Of a DNA stretch of 64,000 nucleotides, positions 47,719 to 59,069 are shown one piece after another. The stretch lies in contig NZ_CP029151.1 in the NCBI RefSeq assembly GCF_003095655.1, positions 2,789,001 to 2,853,000 of the forward strand. The letters run 5' to 3'. Position 1 is the first letter of the stretch, and the number at the start of each line of letters is the position of its first letter. The stretch is from Dokdonia sp. Dokd-P16 (lineage in GTDB: Bacteria; Bacteroidota; Bacteroidia; Flavobacteriales; Flavobacteriaceae). A model generated the notes under the pieces. It was not told the origin of the DNA. It saw only the letters and a list, made by a program, of their open reading frames with translations, and made no database searches. The position numbers and the translations under genes were made by a program.

Positions 47719-47770
47719 AGGTTTACAATTATTAATATAGAGAAGTAGAGGAGTTTTGAAGACCCAATTT

Positions 47771-50158
47771 ATGAAAACCGGAGTACATTTTAAAGATCAA
47801 GAGTTTCCACTAGAATTAAATTTTAGTGTAGGGAAGTTAATGAGTCATTATAAAAACAATCTTACCTCTAATAATTTAAGATTGAAAAGGCGTGCTACAG
47901 AAGTAATGGAAATTATTTCTACCTATCCAGAATTAGAATCAGGAATAAATAAGCTGGATACCCTAGAAAATTATAGTGATCAGATAGATGAACTTTTAAG
48001 TGATCTATTTCCAGATGCACTGCAACAGAACGAAATAAAAATTGCGTCTATGCCTTTTCAAGAGGCTGTGCTACAATCTACCCAGAGATACGACAATATA
48101 CTTCTCAATGCTGGAGATAATTTTATTCCAGAAATTAAGAATTTTAATGAAGACCACTATTACCTTATGGGCTGCAGTATTATTCTTATGCAGTACTATG
48201 GATTTAAAATAGACTTTAGACGTCCTTTTTACTATGAAATTCCTGACGGTCTTAAAATGACACGTTTTTATAGAATGCTCTATAATGGAGATTATATAGA
48301 CATAGAACGCAAGGAAGGAACCCCTCAAATAACAGAGGACGAGGTAAACATACTATTAGATAACTTTGATAATATAGAAATGTGGAAAGAAAAGTTTCCT
48401 CCACATAGCTATGTTTTTAAAGGGTTTGTAATAGCAAATTTATATGATGCCACAACAGAAGTAGCGATATCTGACTTCAAATCTGGCTTGCTACGTTATG
48501 AGGAAGAAGACATCAACTTTACAGACGATTTTCATAGAATTTTTCAAGCAATTTTTGATCTTCCAGAACTTCAAATTGGTTTTTCAAATTACAATCAAGA
48601 AGATGAGGCTTTTGAACTTGTTCCTTTTAAAGATATAAGCAGTTACCTTTTATATGGTGACACAGAGGCCTCTTGTAACACCATACTTTGTAAGGGCTCT
48701 TATGATGCAGTTTTTAATACAGGCGATTATTTTGCTGTATCAGATATTGCAAAGCAGCATAAAAAGGATAAAGGCATAAAGATGTATCAAAATCTATATG
48801 ACCAGGGCATAAAAAGTGTTATTCTAGCTCCTATTCGTCATAAAGGTGTGTTACTTGGTATCTTAGAACTTGCCTCTCCTAATAAAGGAGCGCTTAATAG
48901 CATAAACGCAAATAAGCTTGCAGATGTAATGCCTTATCTTATTGATGCCGTTTTACGTAACAAAGAGCAGCAAGAAAATGAGATAGATCTTATCATTCAA
49001 AACGAATGTACTTCTATTCATAAAAGTGTGTACTGGAAGTTTGAAAAGGAAGCTAAACGTTATTTAAGACTGCAAATAGAAGGCGATAGCAATGTGCAGT
49101 ATAGGGATGTAGTGTTTAAAGATATTTATCCATTATTTGGACAGATTGATATAAAGGGCTCATCTGAGTCTCGTAATGCTGCTACCCAAAAAGATATTCT
49201 ACTGCAGTTACATAATGCTATTGCAATACTAGAAGCGGCTAAGACTAATGAAAGTCTACCTATTTATGAACAGCTTATATTTAATCTAAATGTATTTTTA
49301 GATAAGACAAAAGAAAAGTTAGAAGTAGATAGCGAACGCAAGATTTTAAATTTCTTGAGTGAGAATATTAGACCATTATTCACCCATTTACTTAAGAAAA
49401 GTGACGAGCTTAATGAATTAATTACAGCATATAGAAGTCAGATAGAAGATAGTCTTGGCCTTGTGTATCGCCATCGTAAATTTTATGATGAATCTGTAAT
49501 GTTATTAAATAAGCGTCTAGCATCAGTATTGCAGCGCAAACAAAAAGAGGCACAGATGATGTACCCTCACTTTTTTGAACTCTTTAAAACAGATGGAGTA
49601 GAGCATAATATGTATATAGGTGAGTCTATAACCAAGCATAATAGCTTTAATAAGATTTATCTCTATAACTTACGTTTATGGCAACTTCAAGTAATGTGTG
49701 AGATGGAAAATGAGCATTTCTCGCTTGCGCAAAAAATGGATCACCCACTTGAGGTAGCTTCTATGATTCTAGTCTTTAATACTTCCTTATCTGTACGATA
49801 CCGTATGGATGAGAAGAGATTTGATGTAGATGGAACCTATAATGCTCGTTACGAAGTAGTAAAGAAACGTGTAGATAAGGCCTTTATTAAAGGGACAACA
49901 GAGCGTATTACACAACCTGGCAAAATCACTATTGTTTATTCACAAGAAGCAGATGAGCAAGAGTACCTTAGATACATTAACTTCTTACAGTTAAAAAATC
50001 ACCTTGGTACCGAAGTAGAAATTCTAGAGCTAGAAGATTTACAAGCCGTTACTGGTCTTAAGGCTATACGAGTAAACATACTATACAAAAAAGTGATAGG
50101 TAAGAAGACAAAAGAGTTTTACACCTATGAAGATCTCATTGAAGAAATAAAAAATTAG
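47771..50158 (+). CDS. GAF domain-containing protein, large, uncharacterised
   Basis: This 795-residue soluble protein has a GAF-like domain in the middle (about 265-415). It contains QNLYDQGIKSVILAPIRHKGVLLGILELASPN, typical of GAF core strands. The flanking regions are mostly helical with no kinase, cyclase or HTH motifs. The C-terminal third (VRYRMDEKRFDVDGTYNARYEV) is conserved in appearance but unrecognised. It could sense a small ligand and bind a partner; there is no fused output domain. ATG 47771 is preferred over TTG 47756. A bidirectional terminator lies behind it. Confidence 0.75.
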   Translation: MKTGVHFKDQEFPLELNFSVGKLMSHYKNNLTSNNLRLKRRATEVMEIISTYPELESGINKLDTLENYSDQIDELLSDLFPDALQQNEIKIASMPFQEAVLQSTQRYDNILLNAGDNFIPEIKNFNEDHYYLMGCSIILMQYYGFKIDFRRPFYYEIPDGLKMTRFYRMLYNGDYIDIERKEGTPQITEDEVNILLDNFDNIEMWKEKFPPHSYVFKGFVIANLYDATTEVAISDFKSGLLRYEEEDINFTDDFHRIFQAIFDLPELQIGFSNYNQEDEAFELVPFKDISSYLLYGDTEASCNTILCKGSYDAVFNTGDYFAVSDIAKQHKKDKGIKMYQNLYDQGIKSVILAPIRHKGVLLGILELASPNKGALNSINANKLADVMPYLIDAVLRNKEQQENEIDLIIQNECTSIHKSVYWKFEKEAKRYLRLQIEGDSNVQYRDVVFKDIYPLFGQIDIKGSSESRNAATQKDILLQLHNAIAILEAAKTNESLPIYEQLIFNLNVFLDKTKEKLEVDSERKILNFLSENIRPLFTHLLKKSDELNELITAYRSQIEDSLGLVYRHRKFYDESVMLLNKRLASVLQRKQKEAQMMYPHFFELFKTDGVEHNMYIGESITKHNSFNKIYLYNLRLWQLQVMCEMENEHFSLAQKMDHPLEVASMILVFNTSLSVRYRMDEKRFDVDGTYNARYEVVKKRVDKAFIKGTTERITQPGKITIVYSQEADEQEYLRYINFLQLKNHLGTEVEILELEDLQAVTGLKAIRVNILYKKVIGKKTKEFYTYEDLIEEIKN

Positions 50159-50202: not shown

Positions 50203-51444
50203 TTATAAAAGTGTTGACATCACATTAGTGAGGCCTTCTACATCCTCCATGACTTCTACCGCTTTATCTCTGTATGCAAAGAACACCGCAAATGTGAGTA
50301 CGGATATAATGATGCCCACCATAAATATATTGTAGGTAATTCTTAATAGCTTGTATTTTCTATCGAGTACAACTCCGAGAAAGTATAAATCTTTAGTAAG
50401 GGCAGAATATATGTATTCTTTATCTTGAAGCATTTCTCCTATAGCCCATTCATAATCTTCAAGTTTCATTTTATGAAAATTGCCAAAAAATAATAGGTTT
50501 ACTTTTTTAAGCTTTACATCCTCTCTATCAAACTCTCCCCTCGTGACATTAGGTCGCGTAGCAATGATTGACATAATCATTGATATCATGGCAAAAAGAA
50601 CAAATACTGCTGTAGGGTAAATAAGGTGAGCATTACTAGGAGACTCTAGTTTAGGAATCAGGTTTGCAAGAGCAAGGGAAATCACAATGGCATTTACAGA
50701 TAGAAGGATGTTTGCCTTAGTATCTGCAATGTCACTTAACTTAATGTGATTACGCAGCGCAATACGATACATAGATTGTATTCCTTTTTCTGGGCTTGCA
50801 TCTTTGAGCTGTACTTTTAGTTTCTCCTTTTTGCGTGCCTTTTTAGCCTTTTTTCTTGCTTTGGTAAGGTCGTTTAGGTTGTTATCTTTTTTCGGTTTCC
50901 AGTTTTCTTGAGCATAATGCGTATAATATCGATGTTTTATAGTGAACATCTCAATATTTGCTTTATTCCATTCTTCTGTAGTAAACTCCTTTATGCCTTT
51001 AATTTTCAATTCTTGACGCAAGTATTCACTAGCCTCAGGAAAATAATCCTTAGCAAAATGTGAGGCATCTGCATCTCTTAAAACTTGTTCAAGGTACGTT
51101 TGAGGTTCTACACGCATGTCTGTGGCAAGAATCACTTTTTTAACCTCTTCTATAATAGAAGTCTCAACGCCTTGTTCTTTTAAAAAAGTTTCAGCCATTT
51201 CGGCGCTACGCGCTTCGTGATCTTTTGTACCATCTACATATCCTATGTCATGTAGTAGTGCGCTAAGCTGTAAAATTAGCTTTTCTTCATCTTTAAGACT
51301 TTCTTCACTATTATCAATTATTTCTTGGGTACTTTTAAGTACTCGTTTGGTATGGACATAGTTATGATATATACATGTCTTAGGTAGTTCATTATCAAAT
51401 AGTTCAGAAATAAATCTATCTGTCTTTTCTAGTAGTTCAGTCAT
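50203..51444 (-). CDS. HD domain-PycTM fusion (Pycsar effector-like)
   Basis: This 413-residue protein joins an N-terminal HD phosphohydrolase domain (residues 25-130: H31, H65-D66 in LLHDIGYV, D124 in RDADASHF). A basic linker of about 25 residues (DLTKARKKAKKARKKEKLK) leads to a C-terminal PycTM/DUF5706-like region (225-400). PycTM is recognised by the core DIADTKANILLSVNAIVISLALA plus ATRPN and three membrane helices. PycTM proteins kill or depolarise cells when they sense cCMP or cUMP from a partner cyclase; none is encoded in this window. The HD domain could process nucleotides that set its activity. The role as effector is inference. Confidence 0.72.
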   Translation of the reverse strand: MTELLEKTDRFISELFDNELPKTCIYHNYVHTKRVLKSTQEIIDNSEESLKDEEKLILQLSALLHDIGYVDGTKDHEARSAEMAETFLKEQGVETSIIEEVKKVILATDMRVEPQTYLEQVLRDADASHFAKDYFPEASEYLRQELKIKGIKEFTTEEWNKANIEMFTIKHRYYTHYAQENWKPKKDNNLNDLTKARKKAKKARKKEKLKVQLKDASPEKGIQSMYRIALRNHIKLSDIADTKANILLSVNAIVISLALANLIPKLESPSNAHLIYPTAVFVLFAMISMIMSIIATRPNVTRGEFDREDVKLKKVNLLFFGNFHKMKLEDYEWAIGEMLQDKEYIYSALTKDLYFLGVVLDRKYKLLRITYNIFMVGIIISVLTFAVFFAYRDKAVEVMEDVEGLTNVMSTLL

Positions 51445-51492: not shown

Positions 51493-54400
51493 ATGAACAA
51501 ATATTACCGTTTTCTTAACTTCTCAGTAGCAATTTTGCTCAGTAGTTGTGCGACTTATTCTCCCAAATATGCAGAGAAATCAAGTGAGCCTTCTCGTTTT
51601 GATAATAGTTCGCTTTCGCGAAAGCGTATACATAAAACCTTCTATCTTATAGGAGATGCAGGAGGAGATAAAGATGGTGGTAGTACTTATGCTCTAGATG
51701 CTTTCAAAAAGGTAATAGACACTGCACAAACAGAAAACGATTATGCAATCTTTTTAGGTGATAACATTTATGATGCTGGACTTCCATCAAAAAACAACCC
51801 AGAAAGAGCCGAAGCTGAGCGCAGGTTAGACATACAAGTAGCAGCAGTCGAAAATTTTAAGGGTAAAACTATTTTTATTCCTGGAAATCATGACTGGTAC
51901 GCAGATGGTGTAGAAGGTGTAAAGCGTCAAGAGAAATATATAGAGGATGCGCTAGATGATAAGGAAGCATTTCAACCAGAAAATGGATGTCCTATTGAAA
52001 TGAAAAGCATAAGCGACTCTGTAGAATTGATGATCATTGACACACAGTGGTATCTAGAAGACTGGGACAAACATCCTACAATTAATGATAATTGTGATAT
52101 TAGAAATAGAACCGATTTATTTTTAGAAATAGAAAATGAGTTCAAAAAGAATAACGAAAAGACAATTCTTGTAGCGATGCACCACCCTATGTACACAAAT
52201 GGGATACATGGTGGTAAATATGGTATAAGAAAGCAGTTGTATCCTTCTCAAAGTAATCTACCGCTTCCAGTACTTGCGTCTCTTGTTACTCAAGTAAGAT
52301 CACAGGGAGGAGTATCAATCCAAGATCGTTATAACAAGCAGTATAATGAGTTAATGCAACGCATATCTGTACTTGCGAGAGATACAGACAAAGTAATTTT
52401 TGCATCAGGACATGAGCATAGTATCCAGTATATAGAGCATGATGGTATAAAGCAGATTGTGAGTGGAGCAGGAGCAAAGAACAGTGCCGCGGCTTTAGGA
52501 GACGACGGTTTGTTTTCTTACGGAGGTCAGGGATTTGCTATTTTAGACATATATGAAGATGAGTCTTCATCTGTAAGATTTTATGCAGCAAATCAAGGAG
52601 AACCTACGTTACTATACACAAAAGAAGTTTTTGCACCTCGCAAGGAAGTAAACTTAGATTCGTTACCAGAAATATATCCAGAGACTGTTATGGCTACGGT
52701 ATATGCACAGAATAATACAGATGTGTCTGATGTACATGAGTCATTATGGGGAGATCATTACAGAGCGGTTTATGGAACACCCGTAACTGCTAAGGTTGCA
52801 ACACTTGATACACTCATGGGCGAATTTACAGTGGATCGTAAAGGTGGAGGTCACCAGACGAGATCATTAAGACTTAAGGATAAAGACGGGAGAGCTTATA
52901 ATTTAAGAGCAGTGAGAAAAAGCGCCGTGCAGTTCTTGCAAAGTGTTGCCTTTAAGGAGGTTTTTGTTCAAGAAGAATTCAGAGATACATTTACAGAGGA
53001 TTTGATTTTAGACTTCTATACATCTGCACATCCATATGCTTCCCTTGCGGTGGCAGAGCTGTCTGATGCTGTGGGTATTTATCATACAAACCCAAGCTTA
53101 ATTTATGTTCCAAAACATGAGGCACTAGGCAAGTACAATGCAGATTACGGGAATGAACTATATATTATAGAAGAACGCCCAGACGAAGATTTTCTAGATG
53201 TACCATCTTTTGGAAACCCTGATAGTATTGACAGTACAGATGATCTTTATGAAAACCTACGTAAGGATGAGAAGTATCAAGTAGATGAAAACTCTTATTT
53301 ACGAGCACGTATTTTTGATATGCTTATAGGTGACTGGGATCGCCATGCAGACCAGTGGAGGTGGGCGCGTTTTGATAGTGATGGAAAGAAAATATACAAG
53401 CCTATTCCAAGAGATAGAGATCAGGTTTTTTCAAAATTTGATGGTGCTATTTTAGGTTTACTCAAAACATTAATTCCAGCGTCTAGACAGTTTCAAAATT
53501 ATGATGGAGACCTTGAAAACGTAAAGTGGATAAACGAGGCAGGTATAAAAATGGATAGAGCGCTCACAAAGAATTCTGTAAAGAGAGATTGGATTGCACA
53601 AGCTCAATACATTCAAGATAACCTTAGTGATGAAGACATCGCGAGAGCATTTACAAAACTACCTCTCGAAGTACAAGACGTAGGTGTAGATGAGATTAAG
53701 AAAAGCCTTAAAGAACGTAGAGGTAACATTGTTGACATCGCAGGTGAGTATTATGATTATCTAGCGTCGCTAGTGGTACTTACGGGAACAGATAAGGATG
53801 ATCATTTTGAAATAACTCGTAACGATAAGGAGACTAGAGTGCAAATCTCAAGAATTAAAGATGGAGAAGTTCAAACTCCTTTTGTAGATCGTGTTATAAA
53901 CTCTGATGAGACTGGTGAGATATGGATTTACGGACTTGATGATGATGATAGTTTTAAAGTAAGCGGAGAAGGTAAGTCGCCTATAAGAATGAAAATTGTA
54001 GGAGGGCAAAACAACGATATTTATGAGATAAAAGATGGACGTCGTCTTAAAGTATATGAACATAAGACGCTTCCTAATACAATTAAAGAAAAAGGGGGAG
54101 CAAGTTTTAAAATGTCAAATATCTATTCATTTAACACCTATGATCCTTTAAAGAAAAAGAGTTATGCAAATAACATTTTACCAGCCATAGGTTTTAATCC
54201 TGATGACGGTTTTTTAATAGGAATAAATGACGTCTTTACAACTAATGGATTTAAAGATGATCCATTTAGTAGTAAGCACACGGTAAATGGAACTTACTCT
54301 TTTGCTACGGAGTCACTCAACTTGAAGTATGAAGGAAGTTTTGCAAACGCCTTTGGACAATGGAATTTAATAGTAGGAGGGAAGTTTACAAACGAAGCTT

Positions 54401-55215
54401 TCTCTCGTAACTTCTTTGGTTTTGGTAACGAAACTGTAAACAACGATGATGATTTAGGGCTTGACTTTAATAGAGTTCGTAATGGAGAAATAGGCGCACA
54501 TATAGGGGTAGAGAGTGATAATACCTTTGGGAGTAGATTACGATTTGTATTTAATTATGAGCGTATTGAAATAGAACCTACAGGTGGCCGAGTGATAGAT
54601 GACGCTAGTTTATTTTCACCAGACCGCAGTAATTTCTTTGGAGGACAATCTTTTATAGGCGTAGAAGGAGCTTACACTTATGTAAGTGCAGATAACCAAG
54701 CTAACCCTACGAGAGGGATGGATTTTGCAACTATAATTGGAGCAAAGCGCAACATAAGCGATGGCAGTAGAATGTATGCTTATGTAAATCCTAAACTAGG
54801 TTTCTACAATGCACTATCTAAAAACAGAAAATTAGTTCTCAAAACACTTGTACAAGCTCAAGTGCGTATAGGTGACGATTATGAATTTTATCAAGCTGCA
54901 TCATTAGGTGCAAATTCTGGTTTGAGAGGATATAGATTTAATAGATTTACCGGAGAATCAGCACTCGCTGGTTCGGCAGATTTGAGGTATAGTTTTAATA
55001 GATTTTCTACAGGTTTAATTCCTATCCAAATAGGTGTTTTTGGTGGAGGAGATGTAGGTCGTGTATGGCTTGATGCAGAAGATAGCGAGAAGTGGCACAA
55101 TGACTTTGGTGGAGGTTTCTGGTTAAATATGATAGATACCGTATCTGGACAAATAGGTGCTTTTTCTGGTGAAGATGGCGTGAGAATTGATTTTAGATTT
55201 GGTGTAAGATTGTAA
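51493..55215 (+). CDS. Phosphoesterase/kinase-like/outer-membrane barrel fusion, copy A
   Basis: This 1240-residue lipoprotein (signal ending LLSSCATYS) has three parts. (1) A calcineurin-like phosphoesterase (about 45-330) with intact ligands G54-D55, G89-D90-N91, G131-N-H-D, H230-H231 and G306-H-E-H. (2) A region (about 440-720) whose motif order resembles CotH/HipA-like kinases: GGG (451-453), K476 in RAVRKS, GDWDRH (613-618) and PRDRDQVF (639-646). (3) A C-terminal barrel (about 900-1240) with the L6-like GLRGYRFNRFTGESALAG and a final RIDFRFGVRL strand. A palindrome copy reads LSRKR near residue 42. The kinase and barrel assignments are inference. The substrate is unknown, possibly cell-surface phospho-groups. 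Confidence 0.75.
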   Translation: MNKYYRFLNFSVAILLSSCATYSPKYAEKSSEPSRFDNSSLSRKRIHKTFYLIGDAGGDKDGGSTYALDAFKKVIDTAQTENDYAIFLGDNIYDAGLPSKNNPERAEAERRLDIQVAAVENFKGKTIFIPGNHDWYADGVEGVKRQEKYIEDALDDKEAFQPENGCPIEMKSISDSVELMIIDTQWYLEDWDKHPTINDNCDIRNRTDLFLEIENEFKKNNEKTILVAMHHPMYTNGIHGGKYGIRKQLYPSQSNLPLPVLASLVTQVRSQGGVSIQDRYNKQYNELMQRISVLARDTDKVIFASGHEHSIQYIEHDGIKQIVSGAGAKNSAAALGDDGLFSYGGQGFAILDIYEDESSSVRFYAANQGEPTLLYTKEVFAPRKEVNLDSLPEIYPETVMATVYAQNNTDVSDVHESLWGDHYRAVYGTPVTAKVATLDTLMGEFTVDRKGGGHQTRSLRLKDKDGRAYNLRAVRKSAVQFLQSVAFKEVFVQEEFRDTFTEDLILDFYTSAHPYASLAVAELSDAVGIYHTNPSLIYVPKHEALGKYNADYGNELYIIEERPDEDFLDVPSFGNPDSIDSTDDLYENLRKDEKYQVDENSYLRARIFDMLIGDWDRHADQWRWARFDSDGKKIYKPIPRDRDQVFSKFDGAILGLLKTLIPASRQFQNYDGDLENVKWINEAGIKMDRALTKNSVKRDWIAQAQYIQDNLSDEDIARAFTKLPLEVQDVGVDEIKKSLKERRGNIVDIAGEYYDYLASLVVLTGTDKDDHFEITRNDKETRVQISRIKDGEVQTPFVDRVINSDETGEIWIYGLDDDDSFKVSGEGKSPIRMKIVGGQNNDIYEIKDGRRLKVYEHKTLPNTIKEKGGASFKMSNIYSFNTYDPLKKKSYANNILPAIGFNPDDGFLIGINDVFTTNGFKDDPFSSKHTVNGTYSFATESLNLKYEGSFANAFGQWNLIVGGKFTNEAFSRNFFGFGNETVNNDDDLGLDFNRVRNGEIGAHIGVESDNTFGSRLRFVFNYERIEIEPTGGRVIDDASLFSPDRSNFFGGQSFIGVEGAYTYVSADNQANPTRGMDFATIIGAKRNISDGSRMYAYVNPKLGFYNALSKNRKLVLKTLVQAQVRIGDDYEFYQAASLGANSGLRGYRFNRFTGESALAGSADLRYSFNRFSTGLIPIQIGVFGGGDVGRVWLDAEDSEKWHNDFGGGFWLNMIDTVSGQIGAFSGEDGVRIDFRFGVRL
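51611..51626. repeat. Iterated palindrome inside phosphoesterase paralog A
   Basis: CGCTTTCGCGAAAGCG, perfect 16 bp, in frame as LSRKR just after the signal peptide region. Confidence 0.93.
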
Positions 55216-55253
55216 TAATCTTTAATAGCAAGACTCTAAGATCTCGCTATAAT

Positions 55254-55292
55254 GCATAAAAAAAGCTCCCTATTTGGGAGCTTTTTTTATGC
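55254..55292. terminator. Bidirectional terminator between phosphoesterase paralogs
   Basis: 17-bp perfect stem (GCATAAAAAAAGCTCCC and its complement) with loop TATTT, between the two convergent paralogs. Confidence 0.9.
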
Positions 55293-55365
55293 GTAATATT
55301 TTTCAACCTGTAGGTTGTGCAAGATTAAGATTTAACTTTTTACTAGTGGGTGAATTTTTTATTCA

Positions 55366-55381
55366 CGCTTTCGCGAAAGCG
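55366..55381. repeat. Iterated palindrome behind phosphoesterase paralog B
   Basis: CGCTTTCGCGAAAGCG, perfect 16 bp, 22 bp from the stop of paralog B. A GTGAAT/ATTCAC hairpin (55350-55366) touches it on the left. Confidence 0.93.
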
Positions 55382-55403
55382 TTATTTTAAAACAGGTAAT
55401 CAA

Positions 55404-58400
55404 TTATAATCCTAGTGAAATTCCGAAGCCTAGTCGCCCACCTTCTGGTCCGTTAAAATAGTTTAGAGTTCCTTTTAGTGCACCAGCAGTAGACACATTA
55501 AGACCGCCACCGTAGCTATAATGTAGTGTGTTGCTTTCCATGAGCTCACTCCATACTCTTCCTGTATCATATCCAGCATAGGTATCAATTCTTATTGGAA
55601 AGAAAGCTGTTTTTATAGGCTTAAATAAGTAGGCTATATCTACCGAGCCTGCTAGTGATTGCTGGCCAATGAAACGGCTTTGTCTGTAAGATCTCAATCC
55701 ATTGTTTGCTCCTAAGGTTGCCGCTTTGTAAAAAGGTATTTGATCTCCTATACGTAGCTGACTCGTCACAGTTGTTTTAATCACAAGATTTCTTGATCTA
55801 TCAATGGCATTCCATAAACTTATACTCGGATCTATAATCCCAACAGTATTTGTATTTGTAAGTTCATCAAGGAACCCTCCTTTTAATGATACTTCCATAC
55901 CTCGAGTGGGAAATTGCTCATTGTCTATACTGCGATAGTTATAATAACCACTCACTCCTAAGTATTGCACAGCTGTTATTAAGGGCTCATTATTTAATAC
56001 TGTATCTATATTTTCATAAGTGATGTTTACACCTGTGCTGGTTCCATACTCTCCATCGTAATAGAGACTAACACCACCTGTAAGATATTGCGTATTGATA
56101 CGATTATCATCAAATGATCTGTTCTCATTAGTACTACTGTTTCCTAAGCCAAAAAAGTTCTCTGTAAAATTTGCTGTAGTCGCTCGTCCAAAAGCTTTAA
56201 AATTCCAATCGTGGAAGAGGTGTGCTTTATGCCAAGCTATTCTTACATCTGCGGCTTGAGTAAGAGAAATATAGCGCGCATCTAATTCAAATTTTGTTGT
56301 AAACGGATTTCCTTCAAAGCCTATTGTAGATTTACTGAATTTGAACCTTGGAGTAATTCCTTCGTCAGGGTTATAAGATGTTTGGAGTGCAAAGCGACCC
56401 GCCTTATCTGGTCTACGCTCTGTATCAAAAATGCGATTCTCATAAATGTCATCTATGTGCCTAGTTGCCTTTCCTTTATTTATGATATTATTTTTAGAAG
56501 ATTTTTGGTCATAGAGCGTGACATTTTTTCCTCCTTCAATAGTATAACTATCATTATCCAGTCCTCCTGATAAGACAATATTTATAGGACTCTTTAATAA
56601 TCCTTGAACATTAAAGACATCTTTGTCATCAAGACCATAAATCCAGATATCATTTGTGGTTTCTGATGAAAATGTGCGGTCAAAAAGTAATGCGCCTTTT
56701 TCACCATCTTTTATTCTATATCCCATTATGTGCACATCACCATTATCAAGATTTGTGATGTCAAAATGGTCATCTTTATCTGTTCCTTTTAATACTTGAA
56801 ATTTAAGGAAATGATTGTAGTATCTATCTACGATATCGCCTAGGCGATCCTTACGAGCTAGTAAATCTGCCTGAATACCTTTCCATATATTATCTTGAAT
56901 TTCTATCGGTGCTTCGCTAAATGCTTTTGAAACAACTTCTGGCGTAATATGCTGTTGAATGTATGCAACTTCTTCAAGCCACACAGACTTATCTGATCGC
57001 AAAACCAAAGAGCGATCAAGATTAATTGCACTCTCACTAAATTGCTCTACATAAGGAATATCTGGACCATAATTTCCAAACTGTCTCATGCCGCTCATTA
57101 TACCTTGCATACGAGTTAAAAACTCACCGTCAAACTTTGCAAAAACTTGATCTCGATCACGAGGTACTGCACTATAAATCGTTACACCTTCCTCTTCGTC
57201 AACTTGGCTTTGTGCCCAGCGCCATTGATCTTCATGTCTATCCCAGTCACCTATGAGCATATCAAAAATACGAGCTCTTATGTAGGTTCTCTCATCTAGT
57301 TTGTGCTGCTCATCCTCTCTAAGTTCTTTAAAGAGATCTTGGGTACTTTCTACCTCTTTGCTAAATTTAAACATATGTGATTTATCAAAATCACCATCAG
57401 GCTTTTCTACAATCATATATAACTGATCACCGTGTACTTTATTAAAATCACCCAGTAACTTTTGCTTAGGTACATAGAATAACTTAGGATGCGTATGTGG
57501 TAATTTTATCGCACCAGCTAATCTTGGAATGGCAAAAGCACCATAAGGATGTGCAGCCGTGTAAAAATCTTGAATAATAGTTGCTGGAACAGTGCCAGCA
57601 AAATAATCATCTGCATCAAGGTCATTATACCCAGCAGATTTTAGAAAGGCGATAGGGTCTTTTGCAATGGCTCGCATATTATATTCTTTATCGTCCTTTG
57701 TTACAAGACGTAACCCATTAGTCTGGTTTCCACCACCGGCTCTTTCTACCGTAAGTCCTCCATATAAGGTATCAAGTAATACTACAGGCGCCTCAATTTG
57801 TACTCCATATACGTAGCGATAATGTTTACCCCAAAATTTTTCATACTTCTCAGATTTCTTTACAGCCTCTGCAGGATACACAGATGCTGTCATTGTTTTT
57901 GGAAACACAGTAGGAAGAGCATCAAGGTTGTAAGGTTCCGGTTGTTTAAAAGCTTGCTGACTAAAGGCTTCTTTAAAAGCACCGTTTTGTAATGTAAAGA
58001 AGTGAACAGAAGATGAGTTATCTTCATAAATCCTTACTTCTGTATATCCAGGCTTTGTTGAGGTAAACAGCCCTCTTTTACTTAATCTAGCAGGCTTAAC
58101 ACTACTTCCGGTTCCTGATATTACTTGCTTTATTGCACCATGATTTATATACTGTAGGGAGCGCTCGTGACCAGAGACTATAATAACTTTAGGAACATCA
58201 AATGCAGCTTGCTCTATAGAGGTCATTAATTCATTCATGAGCGGATTGTTACGATCTTGCTTAGATAATCCTCCTTGAGCTCTTAAAAATGACCAGGCAG
58301 CTCCAGCAAATGGTATAAATGCATTTTCTGACGTGGGCTTATAAACTACACTTGACGGGATTTCTCCTCCATATATTCCATTTGAGTATAGAGGATGATG

Positions 58401-59069
58401 CATAGCAATAAGCACTGTTTTATGTCGTGCTTTACGCATTTCGCTAGCAAGTAATACATTAAATTGAGTGCGCGTTTTTAATTCGCATTTGTCATTAATT
58501 CCTGCCGTTTTACTCCAGTCCTCAATATACCATTGTGAGTTTATGAGTATAAGCTCTATTTCATCGTTAACACTGATAACCTCTAGCGGACAACCATTTT
58601 TAGGTAAGAAGTGATCTTCTTCCTTGTAAAAGTCTTCAATGTAGGTTTCAATATCTTCAAGTCCTTCCACACCGCGCTCATTCCATTCTTGTTCTCCAGT
58701 GAGAAATAAGGAAGTTCCTTTGAAAGACTTAGATAATGACAATTGTGCATCAAGTTGAGGAGCTACTCGGCTATCTTCTAGATTGCTGTTGTGTACATTA
58801 TCTCCTAAAAATAAGAGGTAGTCATCTTCCTTTGATGATGACACAATGTTCTCTTTTAATGCATCTAGCAGCTTGTCATTTGGACCACCTAATGCTGCAC
58901 CAGCATTGGCTATAGAAAATATGCTCGTGTATTCTCTAGAATTGGAGTCAAAAAAAATGCTATTCTCCTTATCTCTATAATTATCACGATGGACAGCGCA
59001 GGCTATAAATAGCAGTGACAAAGTAGATAAGGACAAGGATTTACTAAGGCAGCGTAATTTTTTATTCAC
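55404..59069 (-). CDS. Phosphoesterase/kinase-like/outer-membrane barrel fusion, copy B (degenerate phosphoesterase)
   Basis: This 1221-residue lipoprotein (signal ending LLFIACAVHRD) is a paralog of the gene at 51493-55215 along its full length. Its phosphoesterase domain has lost metal and catalytic residues: A54-N55 replaces G54-D55, G125-E-Q-E replaces G-N-H-D, and GHERS (300-304) replaces G-H-E-H. GDN (89-91) and HHP (224-226) remain. The kinase-like motifs are kept: GGG, RAIAK, GDWDRH (607-612) and PRDRDQVF (636-643). The barrel ends GRLGFGISLGL. It probably acts as a pseudo-phosphatase or retains only the second activity. The genes converge on a shared terminator and are about 190 bp apart. 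Confidence 0.75.
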   Translation of the reverse strand: MNKKLRCLSKSLSLSTLSLLFIACAVHRDNYRDKENSIFFDSNSREYTSIFSIANAGAALGGPNDKLLDALKENIVSSSKEDDYLLFLGDNVHNSNLEDSRVAPQLDAQLSLSKSFKGTSLFLTGEQEWNERGVEGLEDIETYIEDFYKEEDHFLPKNGCPLEVISVNDEIELILINSQWYIEDWSKTAGINDKCELKTRTQFNVLLASEMRKARHKTVLIAMHHPLYSNGIYGGEIPSSVVYKPTSENAFIPFAGAAWSFLRAQGGLSKQDRNNPLMNELMTSIEQAAFDVPKVIIVSGHERSLQYINHGAIKQVISGTGSSVKPARLSKRGLFTSTKPGYTEVRIYEDNSSSVHFFTLQNGAFKEAFSQQAFKQPEPYNLDALPTVFPKTMTASVYPAEAVKKSEKYEKFWGKHYRYVYGVQIEAPVVLLDTLYGGLTVERAGGGNQTNGLRLVTKDDKEYNMRAIAKDPIAFLKSAGYNDLDADDYFAGTVPATIIQDFYTAAHPYGAFAIPRLAGAIKLPHTHPKLFYVPKQKLLGDFNKVHGDQLYMIVEKPDGDFDKSHMFKFSKEVESTQDLFKELREDEQHKLDERTYIRARIFDMLIGDWDRHEDQWRWAQSQVDEEEGVTIYSAVPRDRDQVFAKFDGEFLTRMQGIMSGMRQFGNYGPDIPYVEQFSESAINLDRSLVLRSDKSVWLEEVAYIQQHITPEVVSKAFSEAPIEIQDNIWKGIQADLLARKDRLGDIVDRYYNHFLKFQVLKGTDKDDHFDITNLDNGDVHIMGYRIKDGEKGALLFDRTFSSETTNDIWIYGLDDKDVFNVQGLLKSPINIVLSGGLDNDSYTIEGGKNVTLYDQKSSKNNIINKGKATRHIDDIYENRIFDTERRPDKAGRFALQTSYNPDEGITPRFKFSKSTIGFEGNPFTTKFELDARYISLTQAADVRIAWHKAHLFHDWNFKAFGRATTANFTENFFGLGNSSTNENRSFDDNRINTQYLTGGVSLYYDGEYGTSTGVNITYENIDTVLNNEPLITAVQYLGVSGYYNYRSIDNEQFPTRGMEVSLKGGFLDELTNTNTVGIIDPSISLWNAIDRSRNLVIKTTVTSQLRIGDQIPFYKAATLGANNGLRSYRQSRFIGQQSLAGSVDIAYLFKPIKTAFFPIRIDTYAGYDTGRVWSELMESNTLHYSYGGGLNVSTAGALKGTLNYFNGPEGGRLGFGISLGL

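What the first reader, a model, noticed from the sequence alone, without database searches (positions are those of the whole stretch)
51493..59069. Paired outer-membrane proteins fusing a phosphoesterase, a kinase-like segment and a barrel
Two 1.2-kilo-residue convergent paralogs combine a calcineurin-like phosphoesterase, a segment whose motifs (GGG, RA-x2-K, GDWDRH, PRDRDQVF) follow CotH/HipA-like kinase order, and a C-terminal barrel with an L6-like GLRGYR. A phosphatase and a kinase fold in one surface lipoprotein would be an unusual way to phosphorylate and dephosphorylate exported or surface substrates. The kinase and barrel assignments rest on motif order only.
Basis: inference. Interest (0 to 1): 0.8.

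Follow-up and report, generated by a model that had tools for sequence, protein, structure and literature searches.

The report
Outer-membrane phosphatase–kinase fusion proteins
A marine bacterium carries two neighbouring outer-membrane proteins that join a phosphatase, a kinase-type domain that no protein-family library used here recognises, and a membrane barrel; relatives across the phylum repeatedly lose one active site but were never seen to lose both, which suggests that adding and removing phosphate groups are linked jobs in the bacterial envelope.

Summary
Copy A (51493-55215, +) and copy B (55404-59069, -) are convergent lipoproteins of 1240 and 1221 aa. AlphaFold models of A confirm all three parts: a purple-acid-phosphatase domain (Z 28), a kinase fold matching CotH, PI4KII, CtkA and HipA (Z 11-15, pLDDT 88), and a 16-stranded Omp85 barrel (TamA, Z 27) with RGYR on loop L6. 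The kinase call, made by eye from motif order, was right; Pfam and NCBIfam have no model for it. Three corrections: (1) phosphatase plus Omp85 is already described as the Omp85 'Metallo' subfamily (2014), there called a metalloprotease, with no kinase noted; (2) copy B has lost four of seven phosphatase metal ligands in all five orthologues aligned, keeps every kinase residue, and is a separate lineage, not a recent duplicate of A; (3) surface exposure is not supported; facing the periplasm is likelier. New here: the kinase module occurs in 111 of 296 Bacteroidota genomes, in four architectures, and in two genomes as three adjacent genes. Of 107 two-enzyme proteins, 10 lost the phosphatase site, 3 the kinase site, none both; two tandem pairs split the activities. 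Catalysis, donor and substrate are untested.

The parts
51493..55215 (+). Copy A: lipoprotein (lipobox LSSC, Cys19), 1240 aa, phosphatase-kinase-beta domain-Omp85 barrel
   Evidence: ORF; Cys19 100% conserved in A-type relatives; full-length model pLDDT 87.2, pTM 0.82
51634..52662 (+). A: purple-acid-phosphatase-type metallophosphoesterase domain, about residues 48-390; presumed metal ligands D55, D90, Y93, N132, H231, H307, H309
   Evidence: PF00149 2.3e-9; pig PAP Z 28.1, rmsd 3.3, 269 aa; the ligands are conserved in 96-100% of A-type relatives
52735..53772 (+). A: kinase-fold domain, residues 415-760
   Evidence: AF2 pLDDT 88; Foldseek CtkA 4.3e-6; CotH Z 15.1; no Pfam or NCBIfam family
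52843..52857 (+). A: glycine-rich loop GGGHQ (451-455) between the first two strands of the kinase domain
   Evidence: model secondary structure; G451-G453 95-98% in A-type relatives
52918..52920 (+). A: K476 at the end of the third strand, candidate nucleotide-binding Lys
   Evidence: 100% in 82 A-type relatives; 31 of 34 in the diverse set
53329..53346 (+). A: catalytic-loop motif GDWDRH (613-618), candidate catalytic Asp616
   Evidence: lines up with CtkA G152-N-F-D155-R-H and with GNWD of CotH proteins
53407..53421 (+). A: PRDRD (639-643), candidate metal-binding Asp641/Asp643 just after the beta hairpin, equivalent of the DFG Asp
   Evidence: aligned with IPYDYD of CotH proteins
53773..54132 (+). 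A: all-beta linker domain, residues about 761-880, in place of POTRA
   Evidence: strands only in the model; kept with the kinase in most architectures
54160..55212 (+). A: 16-stranded Omp85 barrel, residues 890-1240
   Evidence: TamA Z 27.2; Omp85_fam 3.3e-16
54925..54936 (+). A: L6 motif RGYR (1145-1148)
   Evidence: between model strands 11 and 12; R1145, G1146 and R1148 100% in A-type relatives
55404..59069 (-). Copy B: lipoprotein (lipobox LFIAC), 1221 aa, same architecture, phosphatase site degenerate (D55N, Y93H, N132E, H309R in A numbering), kinase site intact
   Evidence: B orthologues beside A-type genes in about half of 18 Dokdonia genomes
56799..57845 (-). B: kinase-fold domain (GGGNQT, AIAK, GDWDRH, PRDRD all kept)
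55407..56432 (-). B: Omp85 barrel (start approximate); L6 motif reads RSYR
   Evidence: Omp85_fam 5.1e-9; alignment
50203..51444 (-). Conserved divergent neighbour: HD phosphohydrolase fused to a PycTM two-helix membrane domain
   Evidence: PF18967 5.7e-37, PF01966 3.4e-8; next to the A-type gene in 76 loci of those fetched; PycTM, HD or both near 14 of 20 distant three-part genes

Best explanation
Copy A is an outer-membrane-anchored, periplasm-facing two-enzyme protein. An Omp85-type 16-strand barrel holds it in the outer membrane, an N-terminal lipid tethers its other end, and between them sit a purple-acid-type phosphatase and a kinase-fold transferase of the CotH/CtkA/PI4KII lineage. The most likely job is adding a phosphate (or nucleotide) group to an envelope substrate and removing it again, with the two activities belonging to one pathway. 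Copy B is a specialised partner that keeps the kinase-type site and uses its dead phosphatase fold only as a scaffold. Shown (by sequence and predicted structure): the three folds, the conserved active-site residues, the phosphatase loss in B, the separate and complementary losses in relatives. Inferred: catalysis, periplasmic position, a shared substrate. Unknown: the phosphate donor (the periplasm is not thought to hold ATP) and the substrate.
For: Folds. Kinase anchors in canonical order: Gly loop between strands 1 and 2, Lys476 ending strand 3, Asp507 in the next helix, Asp616 after the long helix, Asp641/643 after the following hairpin. Phosphatase ligands complete in A. Of 107 two-enzyme proteins 89 have all 7 phosphatase and all 9 kinase marker residues, 10 lost the phosphatase site with the kinase intact, 3 the reverse, 0 both. 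Two tandem pairs (L048, L076) have one phosphatase-dead/kinase-intact copy and one kinase-degenerate copy; in L048 the second copy has an intact phosphatase. In two genomes the same parts are three adjacent same-strand genes: lipoprotein kinase, lipoprotein phosphatase, barrel. In B the phosphatase domain evolves faster than the kinase domain (mean dN 0.244 against 0.162), in A it does not (0.089 against 0.110).
Against: No activity has been measured for any member. The kinase fold is shared by enzymes that are not protein kinases (PI4KII, AMPylases, glutamylases). ATP is not known in the periplasm. The zero in the double-loss cell is not significant by itself (about 0.3 expected). No substrate candidate was found; the HD-PycTM neighbour does not point to one. 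The 2-by-2 table depends on a threshold of two changed marker residues.
Confidence: 0.5

Rival explanations
1. The kinase-fold domain acts on a lipid, LPS/lipooligosaccharide or other small envelope molecule rather than on proteins, and the phosphatase trims the same class of molecule.
For: PI4KII lipid kinases are among the best fold matches (Z 15.1) and the LPS kinase WaaP appears further down (rank 33); the protein sits in the outer membrane.
Against: CotH and CtkA, which are protein kinases, are equal or better matches by Foldseek, Z and profile comparison.
Confidence: 0.25
2. Type Vd-like display: the barrel carries the enzyme domains to the cell surface.
For: PlpD was first described this way; the 2014 Omp85 survey offers translocation as one option for this subfamily (PMC4104836).
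Against: PlpD's enzyme domain was later shown to stay in the periplasm (PMC11116518); about 850 residues of two folded enzymes precede the barrel; no acidic surface-export signal after the lipid Cys.
Confidence: 0.15
3. The barrel is a working Omp85 insertase or translocase (a client-specific BamA/TamA relative), and the two enzyme domains regulate or modify its clients.
For: Barrel matches TamA and BamA closely and the L6 RGYR motif is invariant in A-type relatives.
Against: No POTRA domain; B has RSYR in L6 and its barrel is the fastest-evolving part (mean dN 0.284); kinase-only and kinase-beta proteins without a barrel exist.
Confidence: 0.2
4. The phosphatase handles the donor rather than the product: it hydrolyses external nucleotides or polyphosphate near the kinase site, so the protein is a nucleotide-scavenging device.
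For: Purple acid phosphatases hydrolyse ATP and phosphate esters broadly (own knowledge); the linked HD-PycTM gene suggests nucleotide chemistry.
Against: Phosphatase-dead copies keep an intact kinase site, so the kinase does not need a phosphatase in the same chain.
Confidence: 0.1
5. Both folds are mainly structural or binding scaffolds (pseudoenzymes), as with the purple-acid-phosphatase relative GAP50, which anchors the Plasmodium motor.
For: GAP50 is the best sequence match of the phosphatase profile in the PDB (6.2e-6); degenerate copies are kept in genomes.
Against: 89 of 107 proteins keep all marker residues of both sites, which scaffolding alone does not explain.
Confidence: 0.1

Closest known systems
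Omp85 'Metallo' subfamily (Heinz and Lithgow 2014, PMC4104836)
   Same: PF00149 domain N-terminal to an Omp85 barrel, no POTRA; also cited as uncharacterised in 2024 (PMC11116518)
   Different: Described as a metalloprotease; the kinase-fold domain, the kinase-only and kinase-barrel architectures and the dead-site copies were not described in the main text
CotH spore-coat kinase (PF08757; PDB 5jd9)
   Same: Same fold over 252 residues, Z 15.1; catalytic-loop and I-P-x-D-x-D motifs in register by profile alignment, one-on-one E 3.6e-4; works outside the cytoplasm (own knowledge)
   Different: Below Pfam detection, 13% identity; fused to a phosphatase and an outer-membrane barrel; profile probability only 37%
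CtkA (HipA-like kinase of Helicobacter, PDB 3akk)
   Same: Best Foldseek match (4.3e-6); best kinase match in PDB sequence searches (E 0.38, then 0.033 with a broader profile), with Asp155 aligned to Asp616
   Different: Sequence match is below significance; CtkA is a small single-domain protein
Fam20C secretory-pathway kinase
   Same: Foldseek probability 0.98-0.99, Z 10.7; also extracytoplasmic (own knowledge)
   Different: Eukaryotic, single enzyme domain, weak Foldseek E (6e-3)
Purple acid phosphatase / TRAP (PDB 7ov2, 1ute)
   Same: Z 28.1, rmsd 3.3 over 269 residues, 22% identity; seven candidate metal ligands including the Tyr
   Different: Part of a membrane fusion; copy B lacks four ligands
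PlpD (patatin-Omp85)
   Same: An enzyme domain in front of an Omp85 barrel
   Different: Different enzyme, one POTRA, homodimer; no second enzyme

Membership tests
Omp85 superfamily | 16-stranded outer-membrane barrel of the BamA/TamA type | tested here: met
   16 strands in the model; TamA Z 27.2, rmsd 2.7, 292 aa; BamA Z 26.2
Omp85 superfamily | L6 (V)RGF/Y motif | tested here: met
   A: GLRGYR between strands 11 and 12, R and G invariant in A-type relatives; B has RSYR
Omp85 superfamily | POTRA domain(s) before the barrel | tested here: not met
   Only beta strands between the kinase and the barrel. Non-POTRA subfamilies are accepted members (PMC4104836), so this does not exclude membership
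Omp85 'Metallo' subfamily | PF00149 domain plus Omp85 barrel | tested here: met
   PF00149 2.3e-9 in A, barrel as above; the paper's own member list was not compared
CotH (PF08757) | Sequence match to the family model | tested here: not met
   No PF08757 match in A, B, or any of the 45 and 35 aligned members
CotH (PF08757) | CotH kinase fold | tested here: met
   5jd9 Z 15.1, rmsd 4.2, 252 aa
CotH (PF08757) | Autophosphorylation and protein kinase activity | not testable with these tools
   needs purified protein
HipA_C (PF07804), including CtkA-like | Sequence match to the family model | tested here: not met
   2 of 35 members at best E 0.19; profile-profile E 0.35
Protein-kinase-like fold (CotH/HipA/PI4KII/Fam20 lineage) | Two lobes with Gly loop, Lys, catalytic Asp and metal Asp in order | tested here: met
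   superposition of the catalytic residues on solved structures was not inspected atom by atom
Purple acid phosphatase | Seven metal ligands (D, D, Y, N, H, H, H) | tested here: met
   Copy A: D55, D90, Y93, N132, H231, H307, H309, conserved in 96-100% of A-type relatives. Copy B: not met (N, D, H, E, H, H, R)
Type Vd autotransporter | Enzyme domain exposed on the cell surface | not testable with these tools
   needs accessibility experiments; indirect evidence points to the periplasm

The most novel reading that the evidence does not exclude
A phylum-wide, previously unrecognised family of envelope kinases in Bacteroidota, often fused to its opposing phosphatase and an Omp85 barrel, runs reversible phosphorylation (or a related modification) of periplasmic or outer-membrane components, with paralogues that have divided the two activities between them.
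Probability: 0.4. Interest if true: 0.92.

Novelty: new variant of a known kind. Interest (0 to 1): 0.76.

Why it matters
Reversible phosphorylation outside the bacterial cytoplasm is little explored, partly because no ATP source is known there. Here a kinase fold with an intact catalytic apparatus sits in the outer membrane of a large share of Bacteroidota, in the same chain as a phosphatase. The dead-site paralogues make the idea testable: B-type genes are natural phosphatase knock-outs and the kinase-degenerate copies are natural kinase knock-outs. It also corrects the standing label of the Omp85 'Metallo' subfamily from metalloprotease to phosphatase-kinase.

Tried and rejected
B as a recent duplicate of A: rejected, B groups with a phosphatase-dead Flavobacteriaceae copy at 100/99 and away from A. 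HipA membership: no family match, profile comparison 0.35 against controls of 0.044 and 0.23. The weak FAM198 (0.04 to 0.23) and PDC-M03A matches fall on or next to the GDWDRH/PRDRD region and were not used as evidence. The second PDB sequence hit, enterochelin esterase (0.79), is a short composition match. A published Riemerella metallophosphoesterase with phosphatase activity (PMC8208144) could not be read, so whether it belongs here is open. No paper joining CotH and Omp85 was found in the held library; that is not proof of absence. My first search for HipA and CotH motifs by regular expression missed most loci and was replaced by profile alignment. Attempts to find a substrate from conserved neighbours gave only the HD-PycTM and GAF genes.
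Full report
What was checked. The window lies in a 3.62 Mb Dokdonia-type genome (G000; its closest named matches are Dokdonia, 98% identical). Both ORFs are intact, convergent and 188 bp apart. They are 39% identical along their length and are the only two proteins of this kind in the genome; a third hit is a weak match to another barrel.

Phosphatase domain. Pfam finds PF00149 in A (2.3e-9) and nothing in B. The full-length model of A (pLDDT 87.2, pTM 0.82) matches purple acid phosphatases over 269 residues (pig enzyme, Z 28.1, rmsd 3.3, 22% identity). The profile of the family finds GAP50 (6.2e-6) and TRAP (1.1e-4) in the PDB by sequence. The seven candidate ligands D55, D90, Y93, N132, H231, H307 and H309 are conserved in 96-100% of A-type relatives. 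All five aligned B orthologues read N, D, H, E, H, H, R at these positions.

Kinase domain. A separate model of A 400-760 has pLDDT 88 and pTM 0.88. Foldseek: CtkA 4.3e-6, PI4KIIalpha 2.9e-4, Fam20C about 6e-3 at probability 0.98-0.99. VIA-align: CotH Z 15.1, rmsd 4.2, 252 aa; PI4KII Z 15.1, 5.0, 263; CtkA Z 13.6, 5.1, 246; HipA Z 11.5, 4.4, 222; Fam20C Z 10.7, 5.2, 239. In secondary structure the anchors come in kinase order: Gly loop 451-455 between the first two strands, K476 at the end of the third, D507 in the following helix, GDWDRH after the long helix, then a beta hairpin and PRDRD. By sequence alone the link is weak but in register: CtkA is the best kinase hit in the PDB (0.38, and 0.033 with a broader profile), Asp155 aligning with Asp616; a profile comparison with CotH proteins of other Bacteroidota gives a one-on-one E of 3.6e-4 at probability 37%, against 0.044 and 0.23 for two unrelated control profiles and 0.35 for HipA. 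No Pfam or NCBIfam model covers the domain.

Barrel and topology. The last 350 residues form 16 strands, matching TamA (Z 27.2, rmsd 2.7, 292 aa) and BamA, with RGYR on L6. There is no POTRA; an all-beta domain of about 120 residues stands in its place. Both proteins begin with a lipobox. In 87 sequences the six residues after the Cys hold at most one acidic residue, unlike the acidic surface-export signal known from some Bacteroidota (own knowledge). With the PlpD result (PMC11116518) this makes the periplasmic side the better guess; it is not shown.

Distribution. The kinase module was found in 111 of 296 Bacteroidota genomes, 61 of 140 genera. Opened loci show phosphatase-kinase-beta-barrel (about 1240 aa), kinase-beta-barrel (about 870), kinase-beta (about 500-590) and kinase alone behind a membrane segment (about 430). 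In two related genomes (L120, L121) a lipoprotein kinase-beta gene, a lipoprotein phosphatase gene and a barrel gene (PF01103 2.1e-11) lie in a row on one strand with almost no gaps. Fusion in one place and adjacency in another is classic evidence that the parts work together.

Dead sites. I scored 7 phosphatase and 9 kinase marker residues in 107 two-enzyme proteins, calling a site lost at two or more changes: 89 both intact, 5 with one kinase change (a K or R at the third loop glycine in one distant family) and intact phosphatase, 10 phosphatase lost with kinase intact, 3 kinase lost with phosphatase intact, none both lost. The zero is not significant on its own (about 0.3 expected). More telling are tandem pairs. 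In L048 the first copy has a ruined phosphatase (GN, GNS, GNLD, FHP, GAEK) and intact kinase, the second an intact phosphatase and a degenerate kinase (GKELD, DWDRE, KNRD). L076 repeats the pattern for the kinase; its first copy is cut off by the contig end, so its phosphatase cannot be read. On a tree of 49 sequences from the kinase to the C-terminus, B groups with the phosphatase-dead L076 copy (100/99), with an intact Leeuwenhoekiella copy next outside (95/90), and away from A; phosphatase losses in L048, L023, L179 and L196 sit elsewhere, as do three kinase losses (my reading of the topology). So B is an old separate lineage kept beside A; B-type genes turn up in about half of the 18 Dokdonia genomes searched. 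Within Dokdonia the phosphatase domain of B changes faster than its kinase domain (mean dN 0.244 and 0.162), while in A the order is the reverse (0.089 and 0.110); synonymous sites are saturated, so no dN/dS is claimed.

Prior knowledge. Phosphatase plus Omp85 was catalogued in 2014 as 'Metallo', with PF00149 taken for a metalloprotease (PMC4104836), and was still listed as uncharacterised in 2024 (PMC11116518). I found no mention of a kinase in it. Hence 'new variant of a known kind': the architecture class is known, the second enzyme and its behaviour are not.

How it most likely works. See Best explanation. Folds, residue conservation and losses are computed results; catalysis, location and substrate are inference. 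The donor is the largest open problem: ATP is not known in the periplasm, so leaked or imported nucleotides, polyphosphate or a non-phosphate transfer must be kept open.

Noticed in passing
window 50203-51444 (-): HD phosphohydrolase fused to a PycTM membrane domain (PF18967), divergent from copy A; present beside the A-type gene in 76 of the loci fetched, and PycTM, HD or both lie near 14 of 20 distant three-part genes. A domain known as an anti-phage effector appears here in a conserved, non-defence-like setting.
   Followed up: partly
window 47756-50158 (+): An 800-aa protein with a weak GAF match, conserved upstream in 56 of the loci; no other known domain.
   Followed up: no
L120:2949-7094, L121:841-4829: Kinase-beta, phosphatase and barrel as three adjacent separate genes on one strand.
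   Followed up: yes
L048:5950-13388, L076:1-6137: Tandem copies with complementary active-site loss; L076 copy 1 is truncated by the contig end.
   Followed up: yes
L119:4129-9148, L118:2436-5775: Clusters of two and three barrel-less kinase-beta genes side by side in one family; their neighbours were not annotated.
   Followed up: no
L114, L115, L116, L117: Kinase-only proteins of about 430 aa with an N-terminal hydrophobic segment and a C-terminal CFxC motif.
   Followed up: no
L130:3549-6128, L131:3721-5940, L132:2636-5233: Barrel fusions whose kinase motifs are degenerate, apparently pseudokinases.
   Followed up: no
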